In this document: positions 3,680 through 63,229 of the stretch, piece after piece
Layout of the letters: each line of letters begins with the position of its first letter
Numbering within the stretch: position 1 is the stretch's first letter
IMG/VR virus record: IMGVR_UViG_3300047552_001097
Location: 107,918-171,917 of that record
DNA length: 64,000 bases
DNA from: a virus
Reading direction: 5' to 3' (one strand)
Notes under the pieces: generated by a model
Seen by the model: only the letters and a program-made list of their open reading frames with translations
Told to the model about the DNA's origin: nothing
Databases searched by the model: none
Program-made: the position numbers and the translations under genes

Positions 3680-3681
3680 AT

Positions 3682-5094
3682 CTATCTAGTTTTATTTATA
3701 AGTTCTAATGGGATATTAACAATAACAGATTGTCTACCTGATACGGCTAATAGATTAGTTTTATCTTGATTAGATGCTTCATCTTGAGAGGATGTCATTC
3801 TACCGGTACTAGCACCTACTGAGTTAATAGGATAGTGTACAGCCTCTGTATTATCATCTATAGCTGATAGATATTTAGAAGCTTCTCTTCTTAGAACCTC
3901 TTTATTCTTATAGTTAATATATTCTTTAACTAGAAATATAAGTTTGTTTAGTTCTTCCTTACTTTCTAATTCTTTATATCTATTAGAGTTATCTAGATCT
4001 ATATCTATTTCACTAGGTTCTTCCTCTGTATCTATAGATTTCTCTATTTGTTCTAAGTCCTTAAGTAGAGTTTCAATAGAGTTCTTCTGAGCATTGGTTA
4101 GTTTTAAACCTGTTTGCTTTAATTGAATATTAAATAAATCTACTAGTTTCTTACTATTATTAAGAACTGTAGATATCTCATTAGGTATAACTATTTGTCT
4201 TACTAACTTATCTTCTATAAGATTAAGGGAGTATTGAATAGGTAATTTAAGAATCTTACATAGACTAAGAATAGACTTATTAATAGAACTTTCACATTCT
4301 TTAACAATCCCTTTAAGAATATGAGTGTTCATATAACACCCATTATATTCAGATAGAGATAAGATAGGAACCATCTTTTGGTCTAATAAGAACACTTCAT
4401 GCTGATTAAGTTCTATAGATAAATCCTCAAATAGTCTATACCCTTCTATAACAATAGAGTAAAGGGGTTTATTCTTATAAGGGTTCCAACTACCTTTAGG
4501 GGCTCCTACATCTATAGCTGAGTATATAAGCTGTTCTTTAGTTAGATTAGTCTCTTCCCAATTACTAGTTTGCAGAGATTTATCTAGGACTAGACCATAT
4601 CCTCTAGAGTTATTAAAATAGTCCTTAGCTAGAGTATATAGACTAAATCCCTTAGCTCTAGCTGCTTTCCACCCGGTAGATACAGCATGAGAACACATAG
4701 CTGTTTTAGAGTCCTTTATATTTCTAAATTTAATATTGAAATTAGATAGTAACATCTTATATTCAAAGGAAGCACTATGAGCTATTAGAGTTATATCCTG
4801 TAGATGTTTATTATAAAGAGTCTCAATAAAGAATAGGCTATTAGATAGACCTATAGATTTAATATCAATAACCCAGGGTATAGCATTCTCCTCTATGTTT
4901 ATTTGTAATAGGGCTATAAGAGAGTTATGAGGATTTAGTCCTTTATTCTTCCCTGGTTTATTAGGATTACCATAAGTTTCTGTGTCTATACAGGCATATC
5001 CTTTGTAGGAATTAATAAATGAATCTAGTTCTTTTAATTCATCTATATCCTTAATCAAATAGAAATCTATAATATCCGACTCAATTAACTTCAT
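3682..5094 (-). CDS. polA: Family A DNA polymerase, N-terminal 3'-5' exonuclease/thumb part (split gene)
   Basis: Proofreading half of the split polymerase. Exo I is ACIDTETYG (Asp37, Glu39), Exo II is LIAHSASFEYKML near residue 105, and Exo III is YSAIDVGAP near residue 191 (Tyr and Asp retained). A charged helical stretch from about residue 250 to 420 fits the thumb. The last 50 residues hold the start of the polymerase domain (VGASTGRMTSSQ, the T-G-R motif, then SGRQ...VNIP) and then stop. Joined to the next gene the order would be normal: NIP, a short linker, then motif A. There is no 5' nuclease domain; a separate 5'-3' exonuclease is encoded at 49938-50672. It is first in its operon, 38 bases from a divergent plus-strand gene. 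Confidence 0.9.
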   Translation of the reverse strand: MKLIESDIIDFYLIKDIDELKELDSFINSYKGYACIDTETYGNPNKPGKNKGLNPHNSLIALLQINIEENAIPWVIDIKSIGLSNSLFFIETLYNKHLQDITLIAHSASFEYKMLLSNFNIKFRNIKDSKTAMCSHAVSTGWKAARAKGFSLYTLAKDYFNNSRGYGLVLDKSLQTSNWEETNLTKEQLIYSAIDVGAPKGSWNPYKNKPLYSIVIEGYRLFEDLSIELNQHEVFLLDQKMVPILSLSEYNGCYMNTHILKGIVKECESSINKSILSLCKILKLPIQYSLNLIEDKLVRQIVIPNEISTVLNNSKKLVDLFNIQLKQTGLKLTNAQKNSIETLLKDLEQIEKSIDTEEEPSEIDIDLDNSNRYKELESKEELNKLIFLVKEYINYKNKEVLRREASKYLSAIDDNTEAVHYPINSVGASTGRMTSSQDEASNQDKTNLLAVSGRQSVIVNIPLELINKTR

Positions 5095-40896: not shown

Positions 40897-43155
40897 CTAA
40901 TTGGATGAATGATATATATGTATTTCTTTATCTTTTATGGTTATATATAAGGTAGATATATCTAAATGAGTAAGAATATAATCTACAAGTAGGTCTTTAA
41001 TAGAATTAACTATCCTTCCAATTTCTCTTGCTCCATAATTAAGGTTAATTTTACATGTTATTAAATGGGTGATAACCGAGGGTTCTATCTCTAATTTATA
41101 CTTAATAGCCTCCTTTAACTCTTCTAATCTAAGAGCCATAATAGAAGATAAGGATATTAGATTTAATGGATTAGCCGGTAGAATCTCATCTATTCTATTA
41201 AGGAACTCTGGTGTAAAGTATTCTTTAAGAACACTTAACTTATTAGAACTAATATTGGAAGTAGATAGTTCAAACCCCAAAGATGCCGAGTTAGAATAAG
41301 AACTCCCTATATTAGTAGTTAAAAAGATGTATGAATTGTTAAAGTATATCTTTCTACCTACAGAATCTGTAACAAACCCCTCATCTAGTATTTGTAATAG
41401 AACATTATAAATAGAGGGATGGGCCTTTTCTATCTCATCAAATAGGATGATACAGAAGGGGTAGTTCTTTACATTAGAGAAGATAAAAGATTGGTTTTCA
41501 TAACCAATATACCCAGGAGGAGAGCCTATAAGTTTAGATATAGAGTGAGATTCCTGAAACTCTGACATATCTATTTGGATAAACTGAGCAGGGTTAGATA
41601 GTAATAACTTAGATAATTCTTTAACTATATAAGTTTTACCTACCCCTGTATTACCACATAGTAGGAATGAGCCTCTAGGCTTAAGTTTGGAATAAAGGAA
41701 ACTTCTTTTAATACAAGAGGAGATTTTATTAATAATATCCTCTTGACCTACTACTCTTTTCCTTAGATTAGACTCTATATCCTTAAACTTATTGTAGGTA
41801 TCTAAAGGGTTTTTATTAATAGGAACTTGAGTTATAGATTCTATAGTTTCATAAACTAAGGACTCATCTAACTCTGGAAGATTAACTATAAACTTCTGTA
41901 CCTCTTCATACTTATCTTCTTCAATAAGAGAATAATACTCCTTTAAATGTTTATTAGGGGTTTTATTCTTTATCTTTAACTTACTACCAGCCTCATCTAG
42001 TACATCTATAGCTTTATCTGGATAGTTCCTATTTGTTATATATTGACTGCTATTAACTATTACCTTAAGGATAGAGTCAGGTACTATCATTCCATGATAT
42101 CTCTCGTACTTAGTTCTATTTCCTCTAAGAATCTCTAGAGTCTCTTCCTTACTACATTCTTCTAGAGGGATAATATTAAACCTTCTAGTAAAGGCTTTAT
42201 CCTTTTCTATATTTAATTTAAACTCCCTATAGGTAGTAGCACCTATACATTTTAATTCACCTCTACTAAGGGCAGGCTTAAGTAGATTAGATAAATCTAA
42301 GGAACCCTCATAGTTACCTAGACCTACAATATTATGAATCTCATCTATAAAGAGAATAACGCTAGGATTAGACTTACAGTATTTAATAAGTAGAGCTACT
42401 CTCTCTTCTAACTCCCCTCTAAACTTAGTACCAGATATTAAAGCTCCAGTATCTAAAGATACAATTCTAGTATTGTCTAAAGGAGGGTATATTCCAGATA
42501 CTACTAATTGAGCTAATCCCTCTACTAACTGAGTCTTACCAAAGCCAGCTTCCCCTAGTATAAGAATATTACTCTTAGTCTTTCTTAATAAAGATTTAAC
42601 TATAGAGTCTAGTTCTTTAGTTCTACCTATTAGGGGATCTAGTTCATTCTTCTCAGCTTTTAGAGTTAAATCAATACAGAAGTCTTCAATAGATGTAGGA
42701 ATAGAGCTAGATACAGTAGTAACTAATAAGCCTTCTTGTAGAAGAGTAACAATCTGTTCTTCTATAGCCTTAATATCTACATTAGAGGTAAAGGCTTTTT
42801 CAAAGAAGGATAGATTATTATTACTTTTAAGTACATGAACAAGGGCTAAGAATATAGACTCAGGTTCTATATGCTCTAGATTAAATCTGTTACTTATTTC
42901 CTCTGCTTGTTTTAGACATATATGTATATACTTAGAATATTGATTAGGGAAAGGATTAAAATTTATTCCTGGAATATTAATTAAATAATTAGTATCTAAG
43001 TTATTCTTCTTTAAAATGCTAGATATTTTAGAAGACCCTTCTTGTAATAATCCTATAAGTAAATGGTTAAAGCTAACAGAGGTGTTTTGACTATTAGCAA
43101 TACTCTTAGCTATACTAAGAACCTTATCAGAACCTTGAGATAGATTTAGAGACAT
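40897..43155 (-). CDS. ClpA/ClpC-type double AAA+ unfoldase with ClpP-loop-like motif
   Basis: ATP-driven protein unfoldase. The N-terminal Clp_N repeat domain covers about residues 1-140. D1 has Walker A GEAGFGKT and Walker B LFIDEIHNI. D2 has Walker A GNTGVGKT, QESHSISKLIGSPPGYIGYE (pore loop) and Walker B IILFDEIEKAHP. No long coiled-coil M-domain (ClpB type) separates D1 and D2, so it is ClpA/C-like. In D2, after TTNIGSS, the loop ASLGFEL sits where ClpA and ClpX carry the I-G-L/F ClpP-docking tripeptide. No ClpP is encoded here, so it may dock on host ClpP. I start at the inner Met (MSLNLSQGS, 43155) because it begins the Clp_N helix; 43185 is also possible. It overlaps the helicase gene by 10 bases. 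Confidence 0.85.
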   Translation of the reverse strand: MSLNLSQGSDKVLSIAKSIANSQNTSVSFNHLLIGLLQEGSSKISSILKKNNLDTNYLINIPGINFNPFPNQYSKYIHICLKQAEEISNRFNLEHIEPESIFLALVHVLKSNNNLSFFEKAFTSNVDIKAIEEQIVTLLQEGLLVTTVSSSIPTSIEDFCIDLTLKAEKNELDPLIGRTKELDSIVKSLLRKTKSNILILGEAGFGKTQLVEGLAQLVVSGIYPPLDNTRIVSLDTGALISGTKFRGELEERVALLIKYCKSNPSVILFIDEIHNIVGLGNYEGSLDLSNLLKPALSRGELKCIGATTYREFKLNIEKDKAFTRRFNIIPLEECSKEETLEILRGNRTKYERYHGMIVPDSILKVIVNSSQYITNRNYPDKAIDVLDEAGSKLKIKNKTPNKHLKEYYSLIEEDKYEEVQKFIVNLPELDESLVYETIESITQVPINKNPLDTYNKFKDIESNLRKRVVGQEDIINKISSCIKRSFLYSKLKPRGSFLLCGNTGVGKTYIVKELSKLLLSNPAQFIQIDMSEFQESHSISKLIGSPPGYIGYENQSFIFSNVKNYPFCIILFDEIEKAHPSIYNVLLQILDEGFVTDSVGRKIYFNNSYIFLTTNIGSSYSNSASLGFELSTSNISSNKLSVLKEYFTPEFLNRIDEILPANPLNLISLSSIMALRLEELKEAIKYKLEIEPSVITHLITCKINLNYGAREIGRIVNSIKDLLVDYILTHLDISTLYITIKDKEIHIYHSSN

Positions 43156-45203
43156 AGGGATAATAAATCTTCTGGATAGAAACAACTAGATAAACTTAGA
43201 TTAACCCCATATAGTTCATCACATAAAGGGATTAGTAATATAGAACCTGGCTTATGAATAGTATTAGTTATTTCATTTATTACTATTTTAATATTAAAAC
43301 TATTAAGCACCCTTATGATTTCTGGATTGTTTATTTCTAATATGCAATATAAGAGTTGAGACATTACAGCTATCTCTATTATGAAATTTCTATTATTAGC
43401 CTCATGGTTAGAAGTAATTATCTTAATGAAATCCACTTTAGATATATTTATAGAATTATTTATATTAGTAAAATCTTCTATATCTATATCTTGGTTATTT
43501 ATAAACTCATCTATATGCTCATATATAGATATAAGGGATAAAAGCCCTTCACAGATAGACTCTAACTCTTTGTATGAGTCTATATAGAGATTCTGTGTAG
43601 CTCTAGTTAAAGCTACATATATTAGATTTAGCTCCTGAATATGGTCATTATATTTATTAGTTGGTCTAAATAGAATATCTGCTGAAGGAACTATATACCA
43701 GACATTCTTTGCTTCTGCTCCTTTAGCTCTATGGATAGAACTAAGAATAATAGCATTCTTACTTGGTTTACATAATTCCTCTACATATTTCTCTATATAG
43801 GAGACATCTATGTTCTCTTTTATGTATAAATATATATACTCTATTAAACTATTACAACAATTAAAGTAGTCTATTAAAGTATCTAAACTAATAGTAAATA
43901 GTTCTTTAGAACTTGTATTATTCTGTTTTATACAATCGTGATTATACTTATAGAAACCACTTAATAAGTTCTTATACTCATTTAAAGAGTACGTTTTATA
44001 GTCTTGTAACTTGTTATACTCTAAAGCTAGTCTAAAGAATCTACTAATAGAGATACTTAAATCTGTACATCTTATATATATCTTCTTACCTTTTGATAAT
44101 AGTTCTAAGCCATATTCTACTAATGGATAGTTATATCTACTAACAATAAGGTCTTTACTCTTTACTTTATTAACTATAAATTCTTTATTAAAGCCTTTTA
44201 CTACACTCCCTTGTTTAGGGTTAGCGGGTAGCATTTCTATCTTAACTAGTTCTTTAACTAGTTCTATATGACTATCTGGACATCTATAACAATATGAAAG
44301 GGGGAGTTGAATAGTATTAAAGCTCTCTTTCATAATCTTCCAAATAGAAGGTTCAGCTCCTGCAAATGCAAATATAGACTGGTTATAGTCTCCTAATAAT
44401 ATGATTTGACTACCATTATTAGTAAATTTCTTATATATCTCTAACATTAATAGAGAGGAATCCTGAGCTTCATCTACTATTAGATAGTCTGTGTGAGTTG
44501 GTTCTAGGTTTAAATCAATAGAAAGTTCTAGTAATTGAGTGAAGTCTAGGATTTTATTATTAGCTTGAGTCCTTCTTAATTGACTAATATATCTAATACA
44601 TTTACATATAAATTTAATATAAGGATTTATATATTCTAACTTTAAGCCATATTTATATATAACAAAGTAGATGTTTTCATAGGTTATAGTTAATCTATTT
44701 ATTCTTAGATAGTTATCTATTTGTTTAGTTGCTTGTTTAAATATATTAATATGAACATTAATATCCTTTCTTTCTTGTTTAGTTATATTAGAAGAAGGGT
44801 CTATTCTTTCCTTTGTATATATATAACTATAAAGTTCTTGATTTAAAGATTCATCTTTAAGGAAGGAATTAACGAACTCTGAAGTCCTATCTTGAATATC
44901 TATATCACCTAATACCCTTTTTAATAACCCATAACATAGACTATGGATAGTATTTATCCTTACATTATTTAATCCTTTAATCCTTGTATCCTCTTTTAAC
45001 TGTTCAGCTATATGTTTATTAAAAGCTAGAATCTGTATCTTTTTACCGCCTAAAGCTCCACATAGACCTATGATTTGAGTAGTTTTACCTACTCCTGCAT
45101 TAGCATTGACTTGAATATTATTGGTTAAAGCCTCTTGAAATATAGTTAATTGATGACTATTCCAATTAATAGCAGTTAGATAATTAGAAGTCCAATTATT
45201 CAT
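43146..45203 (-). CDS. UvrD/PcrA-like SF1A DNA helicase
   Basis: 3'-5' DNA unwinding enzyme for replication or recombination. Motif I is NANAGVGKTTQI near residue 37. Motif II is DYLIVDEAQDSS near 222, motif III LLGDYNQSIFAFAGAEP near 253, motif IV-like LSYCYRCPDSH near 285, motif V SSIHRAKGAEAKN near 485, and motif VI LIYVALTRATQNLY near 525. The order and spacing are those of UvrD-like helicases. The C-terminal roughly 140 residues are extra and unrecognised. Divergent from a small basic gene 11 bases away. Confidence 0.9.
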   Translation of the reverse strand: MNNWTSNYLTAINWNSHQLTIFQEALTNNIQVNANAGVGKTTQIIGLCGALGGKKIQILAFNKHIAEQLKEDTRIKGLNNVRINTIHSLCYGLLKRVLGDIDIQDRTSEFVNSFLKDESLNQELYSYIYTKERIDPSSNITKQERKDINVHINIFKQATKQIDNYLRINRLTITYENIYFVIYKYGLKLEYINPYIKFICKCIRYISQLRRTQANNKILDFTQLLELSIDLNLEPTHTDYLIVDEAQDSSLLMLEIYKKFTNNGSQIILLGDYNQSIFAFAGAEPSIWKIMKESFNTIQLPLSYCYRCPDSHIELVKELVKIEMLPANPKQGSVVKGFNKEFIVNKVKSKDLIVSRYNYPLVEYGLELLSKGKKIYIRCTDLSISISRFFRLALEYNKLQDYKTYSLNEYKNLLSGFYKYNHDCIKQNNTSSKELFTISLDTLIDYFNCCNSLIEYIYLYIKENIDVSYIEKYVEELCKPSKNAIILSSIHRAKGAEAKNVWYIVPSADILFRPTNKYNDHIQELNLIYVALTRATQNLYIDSYKELESICEGLLSLISIYEHIDEFINNQDIDIEDFTNINNSINISKVDFIKIITSNHEANNRNFIIEIAVMSQLLYCILEINNPEIIRVLNSFNIKIVINEITNTIHKPGSILLIPLCDELYGVNLSLSSCFYPEDLLSLCL

Positions 45204-53609: not shown

Positions 53610-56600
53610 ATGACAACTTATTATATCTCTCCCACTGGCTCTTCTAATGGTTTATCTATTAATAATCCCTCCTCATACTCGACTATCTATCCCTCTCTAA
53701 TAGAAGGGGATGAACTTATATTTCTACCAGGTAAGTATAGATTAAATCTACTTATAGATAAACAAATAACTAGCAATAATACTTATATAACTTATAGTTC
53801 TCTAAGGAATCAGGCTAATACTCAGTTCCTAGAGACCTATACAGATATATCTCAGAAGGGTGTTATTGTATCTAAACCCTCTACTATCTATGAAGAGGCT
53901 ATTATTACTGGATGTGAAATTCTTAACCAAGTCTGGACTAATGTATCTGGATTCATATGGAAGACTAATATAACTCTTCCATATGCTAAGGGGTCTAATC
54001 AAATATTCTATAAGGATGTTCCTCTAGTAGAAGCTAGATATCCCTCTATCTCTAATCTAGAAGAGGAAATATATCATACATCCTATCTAATATCTATAGC
54101 AGGCTCTATTAATGAATCAGATGTTAATGCTGATGGATATCTATGTACCTACTCTAATACCTCTCTATCTTCATTCCCTGATAACTTCTGGAATGGTCAT
54201 AGTATAACCCTTCTCCCTGGAAAGGAGTGGAGGGGTTATATCGGTAAGGTAATAAGTAATATAGGTAGTACCCTAACTTTTAGATTTCAATGGCCCTCTA
54301 CCTCCCATTCAGCTCAAGCTGCTAAACCAGAGGCTGATGATTTATTCTATCTATGGGGCTCTTTAGATACATCTCTACTTACTCCTAATAGTTATATATA
54401 TGACTCTAATACCCAAGAGTTATATATCTATCTCCCTGATAATAAAGATCCTAATACCTGTGCTATTGGGGAAATAGAGTATAAAGCTAGATTATATGGA
54501 TTAGAGTATTCAGGGGTTGTTACAGGTACTAACTCTGCTATTAGATTGGAAGGGCTAAAGTTCTTTAGTTGTGCTCTTCGTACTACTAATGATAGTAGTG
54601 GTCTTAATACTAAATACTGTGACTTTAATTATCTGACTCTAGGTTATGAAGGTACTATAGCTGGATTTGTATTAAGAGGTTCCTCTGGACTTATAGAGAG
54701 TTGTAACTGGTATGTAGCTGGTAGTAATGGATTAGAATTAAGGGGTAATGGGCATAAGGTTATTAATAATACATTCAATAAGATATCTATTAGACCTACC
54801 TCTACGCATAGTATTATTTGTTATCCAGATGTATTAGATGACCAGGGTTATAGTCTATTTGCTAACTCTGTATGGGACTTTAGTGCGTGGGGTATTGAAT
54901 GTAAATATAAGCGTTCGGTCATTAATTATAACAACTCTAATCAAGGAGGGGTTTCCTTTAATAGAGTATGGAATGGAAGTAATTGTCTATCAGATACTTC
55001 CTTTATAGGGTCCTGGGATGCAGGAGACCATAATGGTCTAGTTATCTCCTTTAATATATGCCATGACTCTAAGGATAGAAGGAATATTACTAGTCTATTT
55101 AGATTGGATTCAGGAGGGGGTAAAGGATGTTGGAATGCTGTATTCCACTCTAATATTGCCTATAACTGTAGGAACTTTAATAGTTCTATGTCTATATGGG
55201 GCCTTCTACCCTCTCAATATAATGGAGATTTAAATATAGATGTATATAACAATACAATCTGGGGTGGATTAACTATAGAAAAAGGTTCTGATACTACTAG
55301 ACAATTCACTGGTATAGATATACAAAGGAATATACTTGTAGACTTTGTACCTTTAGTTTCAACTACTCACACTCTTTTAGATAATGATATTCTTAAGGCT
55401 TCTTATCTTAATAATGTACAAGTAGACCCAGATATAGGTCTTACCTATTGTGACTTTAGACCCTCATATACTAGCTCTATCACTAACACTAGTGCTATAG
55501 CTGGTAACTTTAGTACCTCATATAAGGGAGCTGTTGTTCCTACTATTGTATCTAGTAATTTAGAAAGTCTATACCAGGCTTACCCATTTATCAATGTACC
55601 CTTTGTATCAACAGGTGCTTATTGTGTAGAAGCTATTCACTGGAATGATATAGAAGTAGAACAACTAACTCAATATCCTAATGTAGTTAAAATAACAGGA
55701 TTACCTAAAGGTAGGACCCTTCCTCCTCTATGTAACTTATATCTAGGTAGTTCTATATATCTAACTAGATATGAAACAGTAGATGATGATGGTTATTTCA
55801 CTATATGGTACGTTCTACCATTCTCTAGTACCTCCCAACCTTTATATCTATCTATAGGAGGTTTCTATGAGGGATGGAAGGATACTAAAGGGGCTTTAAT
55901 AAACCTTAATCTATCTATAATCACTCAACCATCTATAACCTTTACTTCATATCTAGAGGGCACTCTAACTCTTAATACTAAGTCCCTATCTCTAGGGAAT
56001 AAAACAATTATTCCTTTAGCTGTATCAGCCCTCCAATGGGTAAATATAAACTCTAACCCTGTATATATACAAGTCCCTAAAAGCTCTATAGTAGGTTCTC
56101 TACATAACTATTTAGTTAAGGACTATCAAGATAGAACTCTTAACTCCTGGATAGATAGAGAAACCTCTACTGATTATTACCTATGGATATCTCTAGTAGA
56201 CACCTCTATAAGAAGAAATAATTCTCTTATAGACTATTCTCTATATCTAGAACTTTCTAATACTTATGTACCTCATAATAATGTAAATGAGATATTCCCC
56301 TCCTTTGGTCTATCTAGCTTTAAGATATGGCTATCCCCTGATTCTATAAATAGAACAGGTAACTCTATTACCTCTTGGACTAATAAAGGACTCGCTGGTG
56401 GTACTTTTAACCTATCCACTCCATCTACTCTTGATTATGTCTCTACTGGATTAAACTCTATACCAGGAGCCTCCTTCTCTGGAGATGATAGATTACTCCC
56501 ATCTAATATGGGACCTATAGATACAGATTTATATGTAGGTATAGTTGTATATAGAAACCCAGACCCAGGGGCTATTAGAAACCAAAGGATACTTTCTAGT

Positions 56601-58568
56601 GCTCTTACTGGTAATGACTACTCTAGTGGTATATATGTCATACCAGATAACACCTCTGGAGATGTAATAGCCTATCCCTCTGGTAAGTCTAAATTAGTTA
56701 CATCTTCCTATGTGGCTAACCCCACTAATCTAACTCTAGGGGGTAACTATAGTAATACTAATGCTAACTATAAAGGAGAGTTATATGAGTTAATAATCTG
56801 GGATAAACCTATAACTCCCTCTCAAAGAAACCCTATCTTAGATAACTACATTCAACCTAAATACTTTAATAACAACATAACTCTAGACCCTGAACCTAAT
56901 CCCTCATTGGGCTCCTTTAACTTCCCTGTATATATAGATGGAGTTCTATATCCAGGGATTCATATAGTTCAGTCACCTATAACCAACTCTCAATCTACAT
57001 TTACTCTTACTAACCTACCTCCTCTATCAGAGGGGAATCACTCAGTATCTATTAAAGCCCCTTCTGGCTTTATTAATAACTTCTCATCCTCCTACTCCTC
57101 CTATGACTTCTCCTTTAACTACTCCTATCAAATATTTATTATGACTCGTATAACTAACCTTATAGGTACTATTACTGATAGATGGTCTATTAAATCTAAG
57201 GTTATTAAAGATAATTCTACTAACCTCTCCTTTACTGACCTCTCTAACCAACCTACCCCTATTAACTCTAAGGTTACTAATAACCGTATAGTTATTGGTA
57301 ATAGCAATAATGAAATGGTGGAGGTAGACCCTAGTACATTATTTATTACACCTAGTTCTACAGTAGATGGAGATATAGAGGGTACTTTATCTACACTTAG
57401 TATTAAGACTAATAGTGTTACAGATAATAAGCTGGGTAATAGAACATTAGACCAGAATATAGGGACTACAGCTTCTAATACTGGAACCCTTACTTCTTTA
57501 TTATCCTGGTTAGTAAAGCATGTTAAGTCCATATTAGGGACTACTAACTGGTATGATGCTCCTCCTACTAATCTAACAACTGTATCCTCTCATTTATCTA
57601 ATACTAGTAACCCACATGGAGTTACTGGGGCTCAATTAGGATTAGGTTCTATTAGTGTACAAAATAGTGATGCTGTAACTATTACAGGAGGTTCTATTAC
57701 TGGAGTAACTTCATTCTTATCATCTTCTAATCCATTAGTATCTGGTACTGCTAGTGCAGGTACATCCAGTCTAGCTAGTAGAGAGGACCATGTTCACCCT
57801 GTACCCTCTGCTAGTTCTATTAATACTTATCTAGGACAGATAGCCGGGTTATCTCCATCTAGTAATAGTATTATCTACTTTAATGGTTCTTCCTGGGTTG
57901 TAGATAGTATATTAAGTCATATGAATAGGGTTACAGCTACTAATATTATCTTTATAGATGACCATTTCATATGTGGGAGTGTTGCTAGTAATAATGGTTG
58001 GACTACTACTAGTAGCGCTGGGAGTTCTAGTTTAATTAATAGTGAAGCTGGTCGACCAGGGTTAATACAAATATTTAATAATAGTGGGGGTACAGGTAGT
58101 GCTTGTTTAGGTACTAACTTCACGAATGGTACAGCTAGTGTATTCCTTAATACCACTTCTACTACTCTATCTATCACTAGTAGGATTCAGACCCTATCTG
58201 CTACAGGAGAAGAGTTTGAAGTTAGACTAGGGTTCTTTGATTCTGGTATAGGTTCTATTAATAATGGTGCTTACTTTATAGCTGACCCTACTAGTAACTT
58301 CTGGAGATGTATATATGCTATTGGTGGCTCTTCTACTACTTATACTACTACTGTAGCTCTAGGTACTATATGGAATAAGTTTACTATTAATATAACTAAT
58401 GGGGGATTAAACACTGATTGGTTAATTAATGATGTAGTAGTAGCTTCTCATACGGTAGGTAGTGGTCTATCTACTGGAGTAGGATTTGGTACTTGTATTA
58501 GAAAGACTGTTGGTACTGCTCAAAGATATGTATATATTGATAGATATACTCTATATCAACTACCTTAA
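53610..58568 (+). CDS. Giant tailspike/fibre with beta-helix and lectin-like domains, 1652 aa
   Basis: N-terminus: TYYISPTGSSNGLSINNPSS then a 'D-E-L-I-F-L-P-G-K-Y-R' stretch, the standard opening of right-handed beta-helix pectate-lyase-type tailspikes. Repeating G/N/D turns continue to about residue 620 (e.g. 'GSNGLELRGNGHKVINNTFN'). About residues 905-1095 form a concanavalin/LamG-like jelly roll (KIWLSPDSINRTGNSITSWT ... YKGELYELIIWDKPITPSQR). From about 1180 on it is fibre-like ('SNPHGVTGAQLGLGS', 'REDHVHPVPS'). A C-terminal jelly roll covers about residues 1460-1652. It probably binds and depolymerises a surface polysaccharide, although no catalytic residues can be named. Two bases after the shaft gene. 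Confidence 0.82.
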   Translation: MTTYYISPTGSSNGLSINNPSSYSTIYPSLIEGDELIFLPGKYRLNLLIDKQITSNNTYITYSSLRNQANTQFLETYTDISQKGVIVSKPSTIYEEAIITGCEILNQVWTNVSGFIWKTNITLPYAKGSNQIFYKDVPLVEARYPSISNLEEEIYHTSYLISIAGSINESDVNADGYLCTYSNTSLSSFPDNFWNGHSITLLPGKEWRGYIGKVISNIGSTLTFRFQWPSTSHSAQAAKPEADDLFYLWGSLDTSLLTPNSYIYDSNTQELYIYLPDNKDPNTCAIGEIEYKARLYGLEYSGVVTGTNSAIRLEGLKFFSCALRTTNDSSGLNTKYCDFNYLTLGYEGTIAGFVLRGSSGLIESCNWYVAGSNGLELRGNGHKVINNTFNKISIRPTSTHSIICYPDVLDDQGYSLFANSVWDFSAWGIECKYKRSVINYNNSNQGGVSFNRVWNGSNCLSDTSFIGSWDAGDHNGLVISFNICHDSKDRRNITSLFRLDSGGGKGCWNAVFHSNIAYNCRNFNSSMSIWGLLPSQYNGDLNIDVYNNTIWGGLTIEKGSDTTRQFTGIDIQRNILVDFVPLVSTTHTLLDNDILKASYLNNVQVDPDIGLTYCDFRPSYTSSITNTSAIAGNFSTSYKGAVVPTIVSSNLESLYQAYPFINVPFVSTGAYCVEAIHWNDIEVEQLTQYPNVVKITGLPKGRTLPPLCNLYLGSSIYLTRYETVDDDGYFTIWYVLPFSSTSQPLYLSIGGFYEGWKDTKGALINLNLSIITQPSITFTSYLEGTLTLNTKSLSLGNKTIIPLAVSALQWVNINSNPVYIQVPKSSIVGSLHNYLVKDYQDRTLNSWIDRETSTDYYLWISLVDTSIRRNNSLIDYSLYLELSNTYVPHNNVNEIFPSFGLSSFKIWLSPDSINRTGNSITSWTNKGLAGGTFNLSTPSTLDYVSTGLNSIPGASFSGDDRLLPSNMGPIDTDLYVGIVVYRNPDPGAIRNQRILSSALTGNDYSSGIYVIPDNTSGDVIAYPSGKSKLVTSSYVANPTNLTLGGNYSNTNANYKGELYELIIWDKPITPSQRNPILDNYIQPKYFNNNITLDPEPNPSLGSFNFPVYIDGVLYPGIHIVQSPITNSQSTFTLTNLPPLSEGNHSVSIKAPSGFINNFSSSYSSYDFSFNYSYQIFIMTRITNLIGTITDRWSIKSKVIKDNSTNLSFTDLSNQPTPINSKVTNNRIVIGNSNNEMVEVDPSTLFITPSSTVDGDIEGTLSTLSIKTNSVTDNKLGNRTLDQNIGTTASNTGTLTSLLSWLVKHVKSILGTTNWYDAPPTNLTTVSSHLSNTSNPHGVTGAQLGLGSISVQNSDAVTITGGSITGVTSFLSSSNPLVSGTASAGTSSLASREDHVHPVPSASSINTYLGQIAGLSPSSNSIIYFNGSSWVVDSILSHMNRVTATNIIFIDDHFICGSVASNNGWTTTSSAGSSSLINSEAGRPGLIQIFNNSGGTGSACLGTNFTNGTASVFLNTTSTTLSITSRIQTLSATGEEFEVRLGFFDSGIGSINNGAYFIADPTSNFWRCIYAIGGSSTTYTTTVALGTIWNKFTINITNGGLNTDWLINDVVVASHTVGSGLSTGVGFGTCIRKTVGTAQRYVYIDRYTLYQLP

Positions 58569-58616
58569 TATAAAGAAACCCTTCTATTATTTAATCTAGA
58601 AGGGTTTCTTTATATT
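58567..58616. terminator. Bidirectional terminator, perfect 20-bp stem
   Basis: 58567-58586 is exactly complementary to 58597-58616, with a 10-base loop and A/T-run outer arms. It ends the tailspike operon and the convergent ubiquitin-like cassette. Confidence 0.9.
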
Positions 58617-58618
58617 AA

Positions 58619-59047
58619 TTACATAGGGGGGAAGTATTCTTTATCTGCTTTAAATGCTACTTGTTTATTATCTAATGAGCAAAATTCATCATTACAACCT
58701 TCATTTTCATTTACCCAATTAGATATAAAAGTTACTTCTTCTGGAGAATTAATGTTAATTTCTTTACCTAAATACCACCACTTTCCCTCCACCTTAATAA
58801 TAGTAATGGTCTTTTTATCTAAGGATTCTTCATTAAATTCATAGCTATTTACTAGTTTAGAGTTCTTTAATATACTATCTAACCTATCTTTATATTTAGG
58901 TTCTAGAGAAAGTATTACTTCTTTACTTGTATGAAAAAGTTCATCTTTATTAATAAACTGTAAATTCTCTAATAGAATTATTAAAGAATATAAAGAGGAA
59001 ATACCTCTTCTAGTCTTAATCTTTACTTGCATATGTCTATTCCTCAA
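58619..59047 (-). CDS. Hypothetical protein at the end of the ubiquitin-like cassette, 142 aa
   Basis: Unrecognised. An internal Met (MQVKIKTRRG, residue 6) may be the true start. Basic first strand, helical middle, then a 'KTITIIKVEGKWWYLGKEI' beta hairpin and a cysteine pair (GCNDEFC) near the C-terminus. It overlaps the 101-aa gene by 11 bases. It may be a cassette-specific partner or substrate, but no known PRTRC protein is matched. Confidence 0.55.
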   Translation of the reverse strand: MRNRHMQVKIKTRRGISSLYSLIILLENLQFINKDELFHTSKEVILSLEPKYKDRLDSILKNSKLVNSYEFNEESLDKKTITIIKVEGKWWYLGKEININSPEEVTFISNWVNENEGCNDEFCSLDNKQVAFKADKEYFPPM

Positions 59048-59342
59048 TAGGGTTTACTTCAGATAAAGGAGTGGTTAACTCTTTATATACTTTATCAACT
59101 TTAGGGTTCTTATTATATTTAAAACCTTTAAGAGCTTTAGTTAAATTAATTATTTCCTCTTCTTGAAAACTCTTAATATTAACTGTCTTACCTCCAAATG
59201 TATATTTACCTAACTTCCTATCCCAAGCATCCTCTAGAGCTTTATCTACTTTAGAGGATTCATTATTTAATTCCTTAACAGAGAACCTTTGTAAAGCCTT
59301 ATTTTCTGCACTATTACTCTTAGATTTATTAGTCTTAGACAT
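59037..59342 (-). CDS. Hypothetical protein in ubiquitin-like cassette, 101 aa
   Basis: Unrecognised charged helical protein, Lys/Asn/Ser-rich at the N-terminus (SKTNKSKSNSAENKALQRF), with a small strand pair (KYTFGGKTVNIKSF). AAGGAG precedes the ATG. 11 bases downstream of the E1-like gene, it could be a dedicated modification target or adaptor. Confidence 0.55.
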   Translation of the reverse strand: MSKTNKSKSNSAENKALQRFSVKELNNESSKVDKALEDAWDRKLGKYTFGGKTVNIKSFQEEEIINLTKALKGFKYNKNPKVDKVYKELTTPLSEVNPIEE

Positions 59343-59353
59343 CTATTTCTCCT

Positions 59354-60049
59354 TTATTTAATATCTAAATGAACTTTATCTAAACTATTAACTACTCCTT
59401 TATTAATATCAAAAGACATTAGTTCATAGAAGTAACCATTAATAATATTATACAGAGTATTAAGCGTGAGGGAAGCTGCCATTAAATTAGCACAGATAAT
59501 CTGAGTATTAGTCTCCTTTTGTAATGAACATCCCCTATCTCCAGGAATCCTATCTGTAGGTTTATTAAGACTAGGATATAACTCTAGGGGATTGGTTCCT
59601 ATGGATTTACCATTTATATAAGCCCAGGTTATTACTTGTCCATAATCTAACTCATTACCAGGAGTAATGAATATAACATCTCTATTAGACTCAGATATAG
59701 CTTCTATAACAGCTTTTCTACTAGCCTGATTATCTACACAAGCTATACAAAGGGTTAAAACACCAGAGTCTCTATTACTTAGAATATTAGAGTATACCTT
59801 TTTATTAACATAAGTTATATGTGAATAACAAGATATATCTAAATCTAATATCTCTTTTTGTAATGGATTAACTTTATTAAATGAAATGCTAGAAGGAAAG
59901 AAACCCTGTCTTTCTATATTATTCTCCTCTACTTTATCTGCATCATATAAATGAACTTCTATATAGTTCATGTACTTTTTTAATAGTTTAGCCATTGGTA
60001 TAGCTAAATAAGAGCCGGTTCCACCACATCCAATAAGGTCTACAAACAT
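59354..60049 (-). CDS. E1-like ThiF/MoeB-family activating enzyme (PRTRC ThiF type)
   Basis: Adenylates the C-terminus of a ubiquitin-like protein. GCGGTGS (residues 8-14) is the nucleotide-binding loop. VHLYDADKVEENNIERQGFF near 32-51 gives D36 and the N-x-x-R-Q motif. SFNKVNPLQ near 56 holds the conserved Lys, and LCIACVDNQASR near 100 the catalytic Asp. The block DRGCSLQKETNTQIICANLM near 171-190 corresponds to the PRTRC ThiF 'C-S-L-x-x-x-x-x-x-Q-x-x-x-x-N' motif, with candidate active Cys at 174 or 186. At 231 residues it matches the short single-domain members. Only a hairpin and about 70 bases separate it from the ubiquitin-like gene. Confidence 0.86.
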   Translation of the reverse strand: MFVDLIGCGGTGSYLAIPMAKLLKKYMNYIEVHLYDADKVEENNIERQGFFPSSISFNKVNPLQKEILDLDISCYSHITYVNKKVYSNILSNRDSGVLTLCIACVDNQASRKAVIEAISESNRDVIFITPGNELDYGQVITWAYINGKSIGTNPLELYPSLNKPTDRIPGDRGCSLQKETNTQIICANLMAASLTLNTLYNIINGYFYELMSFDINKGVVNSLDKVHLDIK

Positions 60050-60076
60050 GTTTACTCTCTTAATATGAAAGGAAGA

Positions 60077-60114
60077 TAGAGTTTAGTATCTATAAAGGTA
60101 AATACTAAACTCTA
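60077..60114 (-). terminator. Hairpin between ubiquitin-like and E1-like genes
   Basis: A 13-bp perfect stem (60077-60089 with 60102-60114) just past the ubiquitin-like stop. It would partly terminate E2-JAB-Ubl transcripts before the E1 gene, or protect the 3' end, so the ubiquitin-like protein can be made in excess of its activating enzyme. Confidence 0.65.
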
Positions 60115-60120
60115 GGTTCA

Positions 60121-60528
60121 TTAGGCTTTAACAGCTACTTTTGTATATAAAGTATAGGTAGCTCCCACTTTAACGGGTTGAGACTTGTCCTTTACAATGA
60201 CTCCATCCTCCTTTATATTGACAATATTATCCTCAAAGTAAAGAGATTCTGATGCTTTCTCAATTAAATCCTCAATGGTAAGACCCTCTACTTCTTCTAT
60301 ATCATATTGGATTTGTTCTCCTAATGAAAAGGTGACAGTAGTTACAGTAGTCTTAGAGGTAGATTCTTCCATTCTAGAGGAAGAAATATTATCAACCATT
60401 ACCTCCATTTCTTCATTAGAAATAGGTTTATCTAATGAGATAACTTCTGGATTAGTGTCTTTTAAAGAAGAATCTAGTTTATTTAGTAGAGAAACGGTCT
60501 TTTGAATAATAGTTTTAACGATGCTCAT
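60121..60528 (-). CDS. Beta-grasp ubiquitin-like protein (PRTRC C/Prok-Ub-like)
   Basis: A roughly 60-residue acidic flexible N-terminal part precedes a roughly 75-residue C-terminal domain with beta-grasp order: TTVTTVTFSLGEQIQYDIEE (two strands), helix TIEDLIEKASESLYF, then IVNIKEDGVIVKD and VGATYTLYTKVAVKA. This is the ubiquitin pattern of hairpin, helix, strands. It ends in -VAVKA rather than Gly-Gly. PRTRC C-type proteins likewise often lack an obvious Gly-Gly and may need trimming. I choose the ATG at 60528 (MSIVKTI, GGAG upstream) instead of 60543. It starts two bases after the JAB stop, i.e. coupled. Confidence 0.66.
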   Translation of the reverse strand: MSIVKTIIQKTVSLLNKLDSSLKDTNPEVISLDKPISNEEMEVMVDNISSSRMEESTSKTTVTTVTFSLGEQIQYDIEEVEGLTIEDLIEKASESLYFEDNIVNIKEDGVIVKDKSQPVKVGATYTLYTKVAVKA

Positions 60529-60529
60529 A

Positions 60530-61360
60530 TCAATACTCCACAAATTTATACTGGTTATCTAACAACAAATCTTCTATGTCAAATAAGGCTATACTTCCAT
60601 ATTTATTCTCCATTAACTTAAGAAAAGTGTCTAAATCCTTCTTTAACTCTGGATTAATAGTCCTAGATTGAGTCTTAAAGATGAAGGTATTAATAGGTTT
60701 ACTAGGCTTATTTCCTTTAATAAAAGTAGTTGTTAAAGGATTAACTAGCTGTTTATATAGAGGAGAAATGCTTATATTAGGAATATAAGTCTCTTCTATT
60801 GGTAATAAAAGTAATGGATTAGATACAATAAACCTTCTATTGAACTTAGTAATAGAAGGTAGAACTGAATAATTATTGTCCTTTATAGAGTGGATAAGTA
60901 TATGAAACCCGGGGGATTTAAGCTCTGAATCATCATCTATAGAAGAAAAATCTCCTTTAATACCAGTAGGATGTAGATGACTATCTCCTACCATTATATA
61001 ATTATCACTGGTGTAATCCTCTAATAAAGCCTCGGATTCTATATCAAATGCTTTAAAACTTAGTCTAGTAGTAGAAGAAAGAGTGACTTGCTGCTCTGGA
61101 ATTACAATTCTCCACTTATCTAACTCTTGATTATATAGAATAACTGAGCTTATTTCTAGACTTAAGGAGTTATATTCCTTAAAAATAGATACCATTCTAT
61201 GCCATAAATCTAGAGGAATCTTATTAATAGGAGGTACTAATGTAAAGAGTTCTACTACTTGGTCATCTAAACCATCAGGGTCTTCTATCTTTCTATAACA
61301 AGTTCCCCAATATGAACTATCTAATTTATAACTACCTAGAGTCTTAGTCTTTATATACAT
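60530..61360 (-). CDS. JAB/JAMM (MPN+) isopeptidase-like protein
   Basis: Metal-dependent peptidase expected to trim or remove ubiquitin-like modifiers. The JAMM motif is GDSHLHPTGIKGDFSSIDD (residues 125-143): H128-x-H130-P, S139 and D142, with E89 a candidate upstream glutamate. The following GFHILIHSI strand completes the MPN core. The N-terminal 85 residues and the C-terminal 100 (PSKPINTFIFKTQS...) are extra and unrecognised. It starts directly after the E2-like stop (TAG then ATG) with GAGGAA upstream, so it belongs to one operon. In PRTRC cassettes a JAB-like protein A is a standard member. Confidence 0.8.
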   Translation of the reverse strand: MYIKTKTLGSYKLDSSYWGTCYRKIEDPDGLDDQVVELFTLVPPINKIPLDLWHRMVSIFKEYNSLSLEISSVILYNQELDKWRIVIPEQQVTLSSTTRLSFKAFDIESEALLEDYTSDNYIMVGDSHLHPTGIKGDFSSIDDDSELKSPGFHILIHSIKDNNYSVLPSITKFNRRFIVSNPLLLLPIEETYIPNISISPLYKQLVNPLTTTFIKGNKPSKPINTFIFKTQSRTINPELKKDLDTFLKLMENKYGSIALFDIEDLLLDNQYKFVEY

Positions 61361-62125
61361 CTATTCCTCTTCATCTTTATACTCATCTTCTGAATCATAG
61401 TCATCCTCTTCAGTATTTGTATAATCCTCTAACTTCTCCCATTCTATTGTTAAGGATTCATCAGACTTATATGCTTCATATTTAGTAAATATTTTCTCTA
61501 GAATAGCTTCTAAAGAGTCAATATCATTAAAGCCATCTAAATTAAATAGACTATCCCAGTAGATATCGTATAACTCTTTATGAGTGTATTCATCTATATC
61601 TATATTATCACCAAAGCATATCTGATTATCTGCCATTCTATTGGGTAATGGAAGAAAGTAATATTCGCCTCTTATACAAGTAGTTATATAGAACTTACTT
61701 TCTCCAGATTCTTTATCATCTAAATACCAGAACTCATGTATAGGTAATCTAAATTCTATAGTTGTAATAATATCTTCTGGTTCTAGTTTTCTACATTTAC
61801 CCTCTAATACAAATGAAATATCTCTCTCATAGGATTCCTCTAGAGAACATATATAACTCTCTTTTTTTAATAGAGAGAACCTTGTATTTAAATCCTTTAT
61901 ATAGGGTTCTAATTTATTGATTAAAATCTCATCAATCTCATTAATTCTACAATAATTTCTAATTATCTTTAAATTTAAATCATTTATACTCTCTTTAAAG
62001 TTAAACCAATTATTGAACTTACAGTATTTACATTCTTTGTTTTTAATATCTCCAGTATCTCTATTAATTATTTTAATAGTTTTTACTTGCTCTCTATAAA
62101 TTTCTATTAACTCAGGATTTGACAT
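61361..62125 (-). CDS. E2-like/PRTRC protein B-like protein, 254 aa
   Basis: The middle-to-end segment YYFLPLPNRMADNQICFGD (residues 156-173), followed by THKELYDIYWDSLFNLDG, matches the PRTRC protein B/E2-like pattern 'P-L-x-N-x-x-x-D-G-x-I/V-C-W-G ... W-x-x-x-F-x-x-S-x-F'. C170 is the natural catalytic candidate. N-terminal C-x-x-C (CKYC, 32-35) may bind zinc. The tail is an acidic Asp/Glu run. The longest frame begins at 62191, but that start would put a terminator hairpin inside the coding region; ATG 62125 (MSNPELIEIY) is preferred. It is first of the cassette and expected to receive the modifier from the E1-like protein. Confidence 0.68.
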   Translation of the reverse strand: MSNPELIEIYREQVKTIKIINRDTGDIKNKECKYCKFNNWFNFKESINDLNLKIIRNYCRINEIDEILINKLEPYIKDLNTRFSLLKKESYICSLEESYERDISFVLEGKCRKLEPEDIITTIEFRLPIHEFWYLDDKESGESKFYITTCIRGEYYFLPLPNRMADNQICFGDNIDIDEYTHKELYDIYWDSLFNLDGFNDIDSLEAILEKIFTKYEAYKSDESLTIEWEKLEDYTNTEEDDYDSEDEYKDEEE

Positions 62126-62143: not shown

Positions 62144-62171
62144 AGTAGGAGTTAGGGGTCTAACTCCTACT
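62144..62171 (-). terminator. Terminator hairpin after hli
   Basis: A 12-bp perfect stem (62144-62155 with 62160-62171) and 4-base loop, followed on the minus strand by a short T run. It lies just past the hli stop at 62181 and before the E2-like start. It decides the E2-like start in favour of 62125. Confidence 0.8.
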
Positions 62172-62180
62172 TTATACAAT

Positions 62181-62333
62181 TTAATGAACAATTATTAGCT
62201 TAATAAGATTACCAAATGGACCAGATAGAGTTACTAATTCTAAGAATAGTAGACTAATAAACCCTATCATTGCTAATCTTCCATTCACTAATTCAGCAGT
62301 ATTATCAAATATAAATCTAGGTTTAATCTTCAT
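62181..62333 (-). CDS. hli: High-light-inducible (Hli) chlorophyll-binding-like protein, 50 aa
   Basis: A one-helix relative of plant LHC proteins that in cyanobacteria binds chlorophyll near photosystem II and protects during stress. Residues 13-32 read AELVNGRLAMIGFISLLFLE, giving the signature E14-x-x-N17-G18-R19-x-A21-M22-x-G24-F25 within a membrane helix. The LELVTLSG stretch near 31-38 mirrors the 'E-x-x-T-G' second half. Length (50 aa) is right for phage Hli. Short and easily missed, it is a single-gene unit with its own terminator. It tells us the host is an oxygenic phototroph, since phages with hli infect cyanobacteria. Confidence 0.88.
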   Translation of the reverse strand: MKIKPRFIFDNTAELVNGRLAMIGFISLLFLELVTLSGPFGNLIKLIIVH

Positions 62334-62468: not shown

Positions 62469-62897
62469 CTAAACTCCTAGTTTACAGATAATAGAGGAAG
62501 GAATCTGGTAATTAATAAGAGTCTTTACAGTATTCCAATTACCCCCTCCTAGACCACAACCTATTTTATAAGGGATATAAACTTTAAGATTTAACTCTTG
62601 GGCTATTTCATTAACTAACCCTAATCCTTTAGATAGAGCTTTATAGTCTGTATGTATCCCTGTATTACCATAGGTATTTTGCCCAATTAGAGATACTATT
62701 ACTAGGCTCTCTATTCTAGTAGTAATAATATCTCCCATTTCTAGATTACCTACTTGTGATTTATAATCTATTTCTACTTGAGGATATTTAGTTTTAATGG
62801 ATAAAGCTAGACCTTTACCCATTACTCCTTGTTTATTAACCTGATGGACGATGATTCCTTCTTTAATGTCTAAGATATTCTTCTCTATGATTTCCAT
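62469..62897 (-). CDS. Macro domain (ADP-ribose-binding/processing) protein
   Basis: Compact macro domain, 142 residues, without extra modules. GIIVHQVNKQGVMGKGLALSI (in two parts, residues 14-34) is the ADP-ribose-binding strand-loop with 'N-x-x-G-x-M-G-x-G'. SLIGQNTYGNTGIHTDY near 74 and YIPYKIGCGLGGGNWNTV near 107 are the second and third binding loops ('G-x-G-L-G-G'). It resembles ADP-ribose-1''-phosphate phosphatases or ADP-ribosyl hydrolases. It may remove ADP-ribose marks used in host defence, or process tRNA-splicing type products; the substrate is not determined. One base overlap with the upstream gene (TAATG). Confidence 0.85.
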   Translation of the reverse strand: MEIIEKNILDIKEGIIVHQVNKQGVMGKGLALSIKTKYPQVEIDYKSQVGNLEMGDIITTRIESLVIVSLIGQNTYGNTGIHTDYKALSKGLGLVNEIAQELNLKVYIPYKIGCGLGGGNWNTVKTLINYQIPSSIICKLGV

Positions 62898-63229
62898 TAA
62901 AGACCTTTTATTAATTGGATATAACCTTTATTTAATTGAATATAGTTGTTTAGAATTGTATTTAGTAACTCTATAAGTTGCTCTTTAGAGGCTCTATCTA
63001 TACAACTTTCAAAGGTTTCTTTTATATCTTTATCTTCAGTATTCTCATAGAATTTACCTATACTCTTAACAAAGTATATTATCTTTAGCTTCCTATTCTC
63101 TCTATAATAGTTCTCTAAAGTCTCAATTACTAATTGTTTTAAATCCTCTCTATTAAGATTTCTGGCCTTTAAATTATATGAAGCAATCTTAAACTGCTCT
63201 TCTAAAGTGAGATTTAAGGTAGATTCCAT
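62897..63229 (-). CDS. Hypothetical helical protein, 110 aa
   Basis: Unrecognised all-helical protein with charged amphipathic segments (LNREDLKQLVIETLENYYRENRKLK). The C-terminus has a short duplication (NYIQLNKGYIQLIKGL). It overlaps the macro gene by one base. Possibly a small adaptor or regulator. Confidence 0.55.
   Translation of the reverse strand: MESTLNLTLEEQFKIASYNLKARNLNREDLKQLVIETLENYYRENRKLKIIYFVKSIGKFYENTEDKDIKETFESCIDRASKEQLIELLNTILNNYIQLNKGYIQLIKGL

What the first reader, a model, noticed from the sequence alone, without database searches (positions are those of the whole stretch)
58619..62125. Phage-borne ubiquitin-like conjugation cassette (PRTRC-like): E2-like, JAB, Ubl, E1
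Six consecutive minus-strand genes include the full enzymatic set of a ubiquitin-like pathway: an E2/PRTRC-B-like protein (C170 in ADNQICFGD), a JAMM peptidase (H128-x-H130, S139, D142), a beta-grasp protein and a ThiF/E1 (GCGGTGS, D36, N-x-x-R-Q, D106). Two unknown genes follow. PRTRC (ParB-Related, ThiF-Related Cassette) systems are known mainly from plasmids and chromosomes; in a cyanophage it could tag virion or host proteins, or counter host Ubl defences. No ParB is seen here. The E2-like and Ubl parts are divergent, so the cassette may be a new subtype.
Basis: partly seen in the sequence, partly recalled or inferred. Interest (0 to 1): 0.95.

Follow-up and report, generated by a model that had tools for sequence, protein, structure and literature searches.

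The report
Cyanophage ubiquitin-like protein-tagging cassette
A large virus of cyanobacteria carries its own four-part kit that looks able to attach a small ubiquitin-like tag to other proteins and remove it again, and related cyanobacterial viruses carry the same kit, which suggests that phages use ubiquitin-style tagging themselves and are not only targets of it.

Summary
A bona fide 172-kb cyanophage record carries, in one minus-strand block, an E2-like protein, a JAMM peptidase, a beta-grasp ubiquitin-like protein (Ubl) and a ThiF/E1, followed by two orphan genes and a strong terminator. E1, JAMM and E2 homology was confirmed with profiles trained without the window or its nearest clade (E = 5e-44, 7e-9, 3e-6), and the catalytic residues are intact. 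The Ubl has no sequence match above noise, but AlphaFold gives a beta-grasp whose best PDB matches are MoaD, TGS, SUMO and ubiquitin. The E2 fold prediction was inconclusive; E2 rests on sequence. It is PRTRC-like but not PRTRC: ParB, PRTRC-E and PRTRC-F are absent, no curated model reaches its cut-off, and gene order differs. Its nearest relatives form a supported clade of large phages, two of which carry psbA/psbD-type genes. The kit is not unique: 173 IMG/VR contigs encode a related E1, and several phage isolates carry thinly annotated versions. Odd features: the Ubl ends in Lys-Ala where most relatives have Lys-Gly, and a strong hairpin separates Ubl from E1. Most likely a working conjugation/deconjugation cascade with unknown targets. 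New variant of a known kind.

The parts
61361..62125 (-). E2-like (Prok-E2 family D / PRTRC_B-like) protein, 254 aa, PN(162)...C170-x-G172; Cys-rich N-terminal part, acidic tail
   Evidence: hold-out HMM E=3e-6; HHalign rank 1 of 168 ORFs, prob. 91%; N162 and C170 invariant, G172 in 90% or more of 26 sequences; 13 of 26 family members hit PF14460 and TIGR03737; AF2 fold inconclusive
60530..61360 (-). JAMM/JAB metallopeptidase, 276 aa (PRTRC_A-like), E69, H128-x-H130, S139, D142
   Evidence: invariant columns in A8; hold-out HMM 7e-9; phmmer 1e-24 to phage relatives
60121..60528 (-). ubiquitin-like beta-grasp protein, 135 aa: ~58-residue N-terminal extension of low predicted confidence, beta-grasp at about 60-130, C-terminus ...KVAVKA
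   Evidence: AF2 pLDDT block means 72-92 over residues 61-130; Foldseek MoaD/TGS/SUMO/Ub/NEDD8/SAMP1, prob. 0.98-1.00; no significant sequence match
59354..60049 (-). ThiF/E1-like adenylating enzyme, 231 aa; GCGGTGS, D36, NxxRQ, K59, D106, C174
   Evidence: Pfam ThiF 1.1e-8; NCBIfam TIGR03736 PRTRC_ThiF 7e-19, below its curated cut-off; hold-out HMM 5e-44
59037..59342 (-). 101-aa protein of unknown function, no relatives found
58619..59032 (-). 137-aa protein of unknown function, no relatives found
   Evidence: as 142-aa ORF from TTG; from ATG
58565..58618 (.). perfect 22-bp inverted repeat, likely bidirectional terminator between the cassette and the convergent 1652-aa gene at 53610-58568
   Evidence: I2, 100% complementary; RNA fold -28.6 kcal/mol, z -7.7
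60077..60114 (-). 16-bp hairpin between Ubl and E1 genes; possible attenuator or processing site that would keep Ubl above E1
   Evidence: -19.5 kcal/mol, z -6.4; function inferred
62144..62171 (-). 12-bp hairpin followed by TGTTTT, between the small chlorophyll-binding-like gene and the E2 gene; likely upstream boundary of the cassette
   Evidence: -18.5 kcal/mol, z -2.7; sequence

Best explanation
A phage-encoded ubiquitin-like conjugation and deconjugation cascade. Proposed order of events: the E1 (59354-60049) adenylates the C-terminus of the Ubl (60121-60528) and takes it as a thioester, probably on C174; the Ubl passes to C170 of the E2-like protein (61361-62125); the E2 attaches it to amino groups of target proteins; the JAMM peptidase (60530-61360) removes it. 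Shown here: presence, homology and intact active sites of E1, JAMM and E2, predicted beta-grasp of the Ubl, and repeated linkage of the set in other phages. Inferred: catalysis, order of transfer, that Ala135 can be activated, and everything about targets. My best guess for targets is proteins of phage or host DNA replication, because the plasmid relatives sit next to the sliding-clamp gene dnaN or parB; that part is weak.
For: All four parts lie together on one strand. Catalytic residues of E1, E2 and JAMM are conserved columns across phage and plasmid relatives. Hold-out profiles and a rank test support E1, JAMM and E2. The Ubl is predicted beta-grasp. The set stays linked: 52 of 80 related viral loci have E1+E2+JAMM, and 48 have all four. 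In most relatives the Ubl ends in, or contains, a (G/A)(T/S)KG motif, several with extra residues after it, as expected of a substrate matured by the JAMM. Some relatives encode tandem Ubls. In one relative (L106) a group I intron sits inside the JAMM H-x-H motif, a kind of site such elements favour in conserved, functional genes (own knowledge). An Ala C-terminus has precedent: CBASS cGAS paired with Cap2 ends in Gly or Ala, and Gly-to-Ala only reduces conjugation (PMC10097602).
Against: No biochemistry. The E2 fold was not confirmed (AF2 mean pLDDT 52; no UBC match, the best E2 being Atg3 at prob. 0.28). The Ubl is not detectably related by sequence to the Ubls of its relatives, its fold model used those relatives in the alignment, and it lacks the conserved terminal Gly. 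No E3 or target is identified. The dnaN/parB link is seen in other lineages, not in this phage or its clade.
Confidence: 0.7

Rival explanations
1. Counter-defence: the phage set competes with or undoes host Ubl-type immunity (CBASS Cap2/Cap3, Bil/Bub); the JAMM strips host tags, or the phage Ubl/E1/E2 poison the host cascade.
For: The cassette sits beside a macrodomain gene whose best PADLOC match is DarG (2e-16) and close to NblA-like and chlorophyll-binding-like genes, which looks like a host-takeover region. Ubl-type conjugation in anti-phage defence is established (PMC10097602).
Against: A complete cascade with its own Ubl and intact E1 and E2 is more than stripping needs. The E1 resembles PRTRC E1s much more than the Cap2-type E1-E2 proteins (PADLOC E1-E2 best 7e-7, against TIGR03736 7e-19). 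PADLOC gives no hit for the JAMM, E2 or Ubl.
Confidence: 0.15
2. Inter-phage or plasmid defence: the phage carries the cascade to block competitors (superinfection exclusion), as Ubl systems do for bacteria.
For: Ubl cascades are carried by many mobile elements; one cyanobacterial plasmid relative lies next to CBASS genes.
Against: No toxin or effector is linked; the two small downstream genes have no known relatives.
Confidence: 0.1
3. Sulfur-carrier pathway (ThiS/MoaD-like): E1 and Ubl pass sulfur for cofactor or tRNA chemistry.
For: The top fold match of the Ubl is MoaD, and E1 belongs to the ThiF superfamily.
Against: An E2-like protein with a conserved Cys and a JAMM are co-encoded, here and in the relatives; the Ubl lacks a terminal Gly-Gly; no rhodanese or cofactor gene is seen in the block.
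Confidence: 0.04
4. Decaying remnant: the cassette no longer conjugates (Ala tail, unusually divergent E2 and Ubl, extra genes).
For: Long branch of the window E1 (1.57), loss of the Lys-Gly terminus, no clear E2 fold.
Against: Every catalytic residue that can be checked is intact in three separate genes, reading frames are open, and boundaries and ribosome sites are neat.
Confidence: 0.1

Closest known systems
PRTRC (ParB-Related, ThiF-Related Cassette) systems, NCBIfam TIGR03735-03738; apparently operon type 6d of Iyer et al. 2006 (PMC1779556)
   Same: Four homologous or analogous parts: JAMM (A), E2 family D (B), small beta-grasp Ubl (C), stand-alone ThiF/E1
   Different: No ParB, PRTRC-E or PRTRC-F; Ubl lies between JAMM and E1; Ubl ends Lys-Ala and is not recognisable by sequence; E1 at 68 bits against a cut-off of 145; lies in a cyanophage
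Unnamed large-phage relatives found here (IMG/VR loci L012-L018, L092-L107)
   Same: Sister group in the E1 tree (100/93); same JAMM subfamily (1e-24); the long contigs have terminase, contractile sheath and, in two phages, photosystem II reaction-centre genes
   Different: Order Ubl-JAMM-E2-E1-coiled-coil; Ubl ends SESKG; E2 about 65-130 residues longer with a C-terminal extension
Cassettes of isolated phages: Salmonella phage Arash, Vibrio phages D69/D148/D181, Burkholderia phage BgVeeders33
   Same: Ubl, E2, JAMM and E1 together in a phage genome
   Different: Ubl ends in or contains TGTKG/VGTKG, with tandem Ubls in D69; order Ubl first; E1 only about 28-31% identical over 60% of its length; annotated as hypothetical or structural proteins
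Bacterial anti-phage Ubl systems: CBASS Cap2/Cap3 (PMC10097602), Bil/Bub
   Same: E1, E2 and JAMM chemistry; C-terminal Gly or Ala accepted in CBASS
   Different: There E1 and E2 are fused in Cap2 and the substrate is a cGAS enzyme; here separate proteins with a beta-grasp Ubl; PADLOC matches are weak and limited to the E1 nucleotide fold

Membership tests
PRTRC system | PRTRC ThiF protein (TIGR03736) at or above curated cut-off | tested here: not met
   best NCBIfam match, E=7e-19, but 68 bits against 144.75
PRTRC system | PRTRC protein A (JAMM, TIGR03735) | tested here: not met
   E=0.076, 12.6 bits against 101.8; homologous by hold-out HMM with identical catalytic residues
PRTRC system | PRTRC protein B (E2 family D, TIGR03737 / PF14460) | tested here: not met
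   window protein: PF14460 only E=0.11, no NCBIfam hit; 13 of 26 family members aligned with it hit both models
PRTRC system | PRTRC protein C (Ubl, TIGR03738) | tested here: not met
   no match in the record (the control genomes also gave none) or in the protein scan; a PRTRC_C-like profile does not pick it
PRTRC system | ParB-related protein and PRTRC proteins E and F in the cassette | tested here: not met
   iterated profiles and PF02195 find none in this record
Prokaryotic E1-E2-JAMM-Ubl conjugation cassettes in the broad sense | E1 with ATP-binding motif and acidic residues | tested here: met
Prokaryotic E1-E2-JAMM-Ubl conjugation cassettes in the broad sense | E2-like protein with conserved Cys in a UBC-type motif | tested here: met
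   sequence only:
Prokaryotic E1-E2-JAMM-Ubl conjugation cassettes in the broad sense | UBC fold of the E2-like protein | tested here: inconclusive
   AF2 mean pLDDT 52, no confident PDB match
Prokaryotic E1-E2-JAMM-Ubl conjugation cassettes in the broad sense | JAMM peptidase with E, HxH, S, D | tested here: met
Prokaryotic E1-E2-JAMM-Ubl conjugation cassettes in the broad sense | beta-grasp Ubl | tested here: met
   predicted structure only:
Prokaryotic E1-E2-JAMM-Ubl conjugation cassettes in the broad sense | Ubl with C-terminal Gly | tested here: not met
   ends KVAVKA; Gly in the relatives. Ala has precedent in CBASS
Prokaryotic E1-E2-JAMM-Ubl conjugation cassettes in the broad sense | covalent conjugation of Ubl to targets | not testable with these tools
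   needs biochemistry or mass spectrometry

The most novel reading that the evidence does not exclude
A lineage of large cyanophages runs its own ubiquitin-like modification of phage or host proteins during infection, and this phage uses an alanine-terminated Ubl whose conjugates resist the JAMM-type isopeptidases of the family, giving near-permanent tagging. No such phage pathway was found in the literature I could search.
Probability: 0.2. Interest if true: 0.9.

Novelty: new variant of a known kind. Interest (0 to 1): 0.72.

Why it matters
Ubiquitin-like conjugation in bacteria is currently known as an anti-phage weapon or as plasmid-borne PRTRC cassettes without a known role. A complete, residue-intact cascade in cyanophages, with relatives in cultured Salmonella, Vibrio and Burkholderia phages, means the chemistry is also in the hands of viruses and can be tested in laboratory systems. 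It offers a route to the open question of what PRTRC-type cassettes do, and whether phages tag host proteins, their own proteins or defence factors.

Tried and rejected
Single-protein search of IMG/VR with the window E1 found nothing; only the family alignment did. Search with the Ubl alignment found nothing, and tblastn of the Ubl against phages gave no match. The clade Ubl HMM and HHalign do not recognise the window Ubl, so sequence homology of the Ubl is not claimed. AF2 of the E2 was too uncertain to use. Tag-directed degradation through the phage ClpA/C-like ATPase (40897-43185) was considered: of 23 other cassette-bearing records only one has a strong match (G022, 1e-239; the rest 2e-8 or weaker), many records are fragments, and the phage record has no ClpP, so it is not favoured. 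Recent gain from cyanobacterial plasmids was considered: holding the window E1 with the cyanobacterial-plasmid group lowers the log-likelihood by 45 (p-AU 0.012; the group was chosen after seeing the tree, and it includes a Chloroflexota plasmid and two viral contigs). Promoter scan was no better than shuffles. No Rfam RNA in the window. No paper found that describes Ubl conjugation cassettes encoded by phages (the library lacks most subscription journals and preprints).
Full report
What was checked. The window is the last 64 kb of a 171,917-base virus record. All six reported minus-strand genes are present and closely packed: E2-like 61361-62125, JAMM 60530-61360, Ubl 60121-60528, E1 59354-60049, and two unknown genes 59037-59342 and 58619-59032. 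The record is a real phage: terminase-like genes (in the window and at 79.5 kb of the record), tail-fibre proteins, separate DNA polymerase and 3'-5' exonuclease genes, UvsX, ribonucleotide reductase and sigma factor. An NblA-like protein and a small chlorophyll-binding-like protein next to the cassette point to a cyanobacterial host.

E1. The 231-aa ThiF-like protein hits Pfam ThiF (1e-8); its best NCBIfam match is the PRTRC ThiF protein (7e-19, below the curated cut-off). A profile trained without the window and its nearest clade still finds it at 5e-44. The ATP-binding and adenylation residues and a conserved Cys (C174) are conserved columns across phage and plasmid relatives.

JAMM. Curated models barely see it, but it matches phage relatives at 1e-24 and a hold-out profile at 7e-9. 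In 19 sequences from plasmids and phages the invariant columns are exactly the five JAMM residues E69, H128, H130, S139 and D142.

E2. Pfam Prok-E2_D gives only E=0.11. The hold-out profile gives 3e-6 against 0.22 for the best unrelated ORF, and HHalign ranks it first of 168 genome ORFs with 91% probability, next 7%. N162 and C170 are invariant and G172 nearly so in 26 sequences; many relatives read PNVYxxGxICxG, the layout of the classical E2 HPN...C motif (own knowledge). Thirteen of the 26 hit Prok-E2_D and PRTRC_B models. The fold itself was not confirmed: AF2 mean pLDDT was 52 and no UBC structure was matched with confidence.

Ubl. No family or profile recognises it by sequence. AF2 gives a beta-beta-alpha-beta-beta unit at residues 64-129 (block means mostly 86-92, one at 72 and one at 75). 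PDB matches are MoaD, TGS domains, SUMO, ubiquitin, NEDD8 and SAMP1 with probability 0.98-1.00, E from 3e-3 upward, and TM-scores normalised to the single-domain targets mostly 0.55-0.68; giant-virus ubiquitins are among the leading viral matches, together with pestivirus polyproteins, some of which are known to carry inserted ubiquitin (last point own knowledge). The alignment contained relatives' Ubls, so the model is not fully independent of them. The protein ends ...KVAVKA. In the aligned relatives the last two positions are Lys-Gly, and 57 of 63 Ubls of the wider family carry a (G/A/S)(T/S/V)(K/R)G motif. An Ala C-terminus is compatible with conjugation in CBASS (PMC10097602).

Anatomy. 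A perfect 22-bp inverted repeat closes the block against the convergent 1652-aa gene at 53610-58568 (58565-58618). A 16-bp hairpin lies between the Ubl and E1 genes (60077-60114; z -6.4), which could lower E1 relative to Ubl; this is inference. A 12-bp hairpin followed by TGTTTT precedes the E2 gene.

Relatives. An E1 alignment finds 173 viral contigs; 80 were kept, and 79 of these have the E2, 54 the JAMM, 62 a recognised Ubl and 48 all four. Some of these contigs may be plasmids or prophages, which I did not check one by one. The nearest group (L012-L018, L092-L107) has the order Ubl-JAMM-E2-E1-coiled-coil. It is sister to the window E1 with support 100/93. Where the contigs are long these are phages with terminase and contractile sheath, and two distinct ones carry photosystem II reaction-centre genes (G004/G005, probably one phage, and G010), so at least part of the group are cyanophages. 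Holding the window with the cyanobacterial-plasmid group is disfavoured (p-AU 0.012, with the caveat that the group was picked after the tree).

Membership. ParB, PRTRC-E and PRTRC-F are missing from the record, no PRTRC model reaches its cut-off, and the order differs from the canonical E-C-F-B-A-ThiF seen in plasmids. It works like a PRTRC-type cassette but I do not file it as PRTRC.

How it probably works. E1 activates the Ubl, passes it to the E2, the E2 conjugates it, and the JAMM reverses this. Active-site integrity is shown; activity is not. Target hints are indirect: in plasmid, chromosomal and some viral relatives dnaN lies at the cassette in 12 loci and a parB-like gene near it in 21, suggesting a link with DNA replication or partition, but neither occurs beside this cassette. 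Counter-defence remains open, helped by the neighbouring DarG-like macrodomain gene.

Verdict. A real and well-preserved phage version of a known kind of cassette, with distinctive features, part of a wider set of phage-borne relatives that are thinly annotated. Novelty statements are limited to the open-access library searched.

Noticed in passing
L106:8399-8639 (IMG/VR relative): A group I intron (Rfam RF00028, E=2.4e-15) interrupts the JAMM gene right at its catalytic H-x-H motif; the frame resumes with NTMQAFFSGTDD after it.
   Followed up: partly
L003:2379-3170 (Vibrio phage D69); L056:3393-3815: Polyubiquitin-like genes: three and two tandem Ubl units, each with TGTKG at its end.
   Followed up: partly
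L005, L010, L108, L109, L115, L125, L131, L132 and viral contigs L063, L080, L082, L090: dnaN (sliding clamp) lies at or just upstream of PRTRC-type cassettes in Proteobacteria, Bacilli and Bacteroidota; a possible clue to PRTRC targets.
   Followed up: partly
L002:1519-2274 and 3499-4539 (Salmonella phage Arash gp248c, gp246c): The E2-like and E1-like proteins of phage Arash are annotated as structural proteins in GenBank, like many virion genes of that record; no paper found to say whether this rests on mass spectrometry.
   Followed up: partly
window 62469-62897: Macrodomain protein, PADLOC DarG 2e-16, common in large phages; possible antidote to DarT-type ADP-ribosylation.
   Followed up: partly
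window 62897-63229 and 62181-62333: NblA-like protein (110 aa, longer than the 50-position Pfam model) and a 50-aa chlorophyll-binding/HLIP-like protein.
   Followed up: partly
window 40897-43185: ClpA/C-like AAA+ ATPase (phrog_4871, 6e-178) in a phage record without ClpP.
   Followed up: partly
record G000:6355-19887 and 82793-95965 (L118, L122): Two giant open reading frames of 4,510 and 4,390 codons outside the window.
   Followed up: no
L007:5865-9062 (Oscillatoria plasmid pOSC7112.01): A cyanobacterial PRTRC-like cassette lies directly next to CBASS-type genes (DncV-like and SAVED).
   Followed up: no
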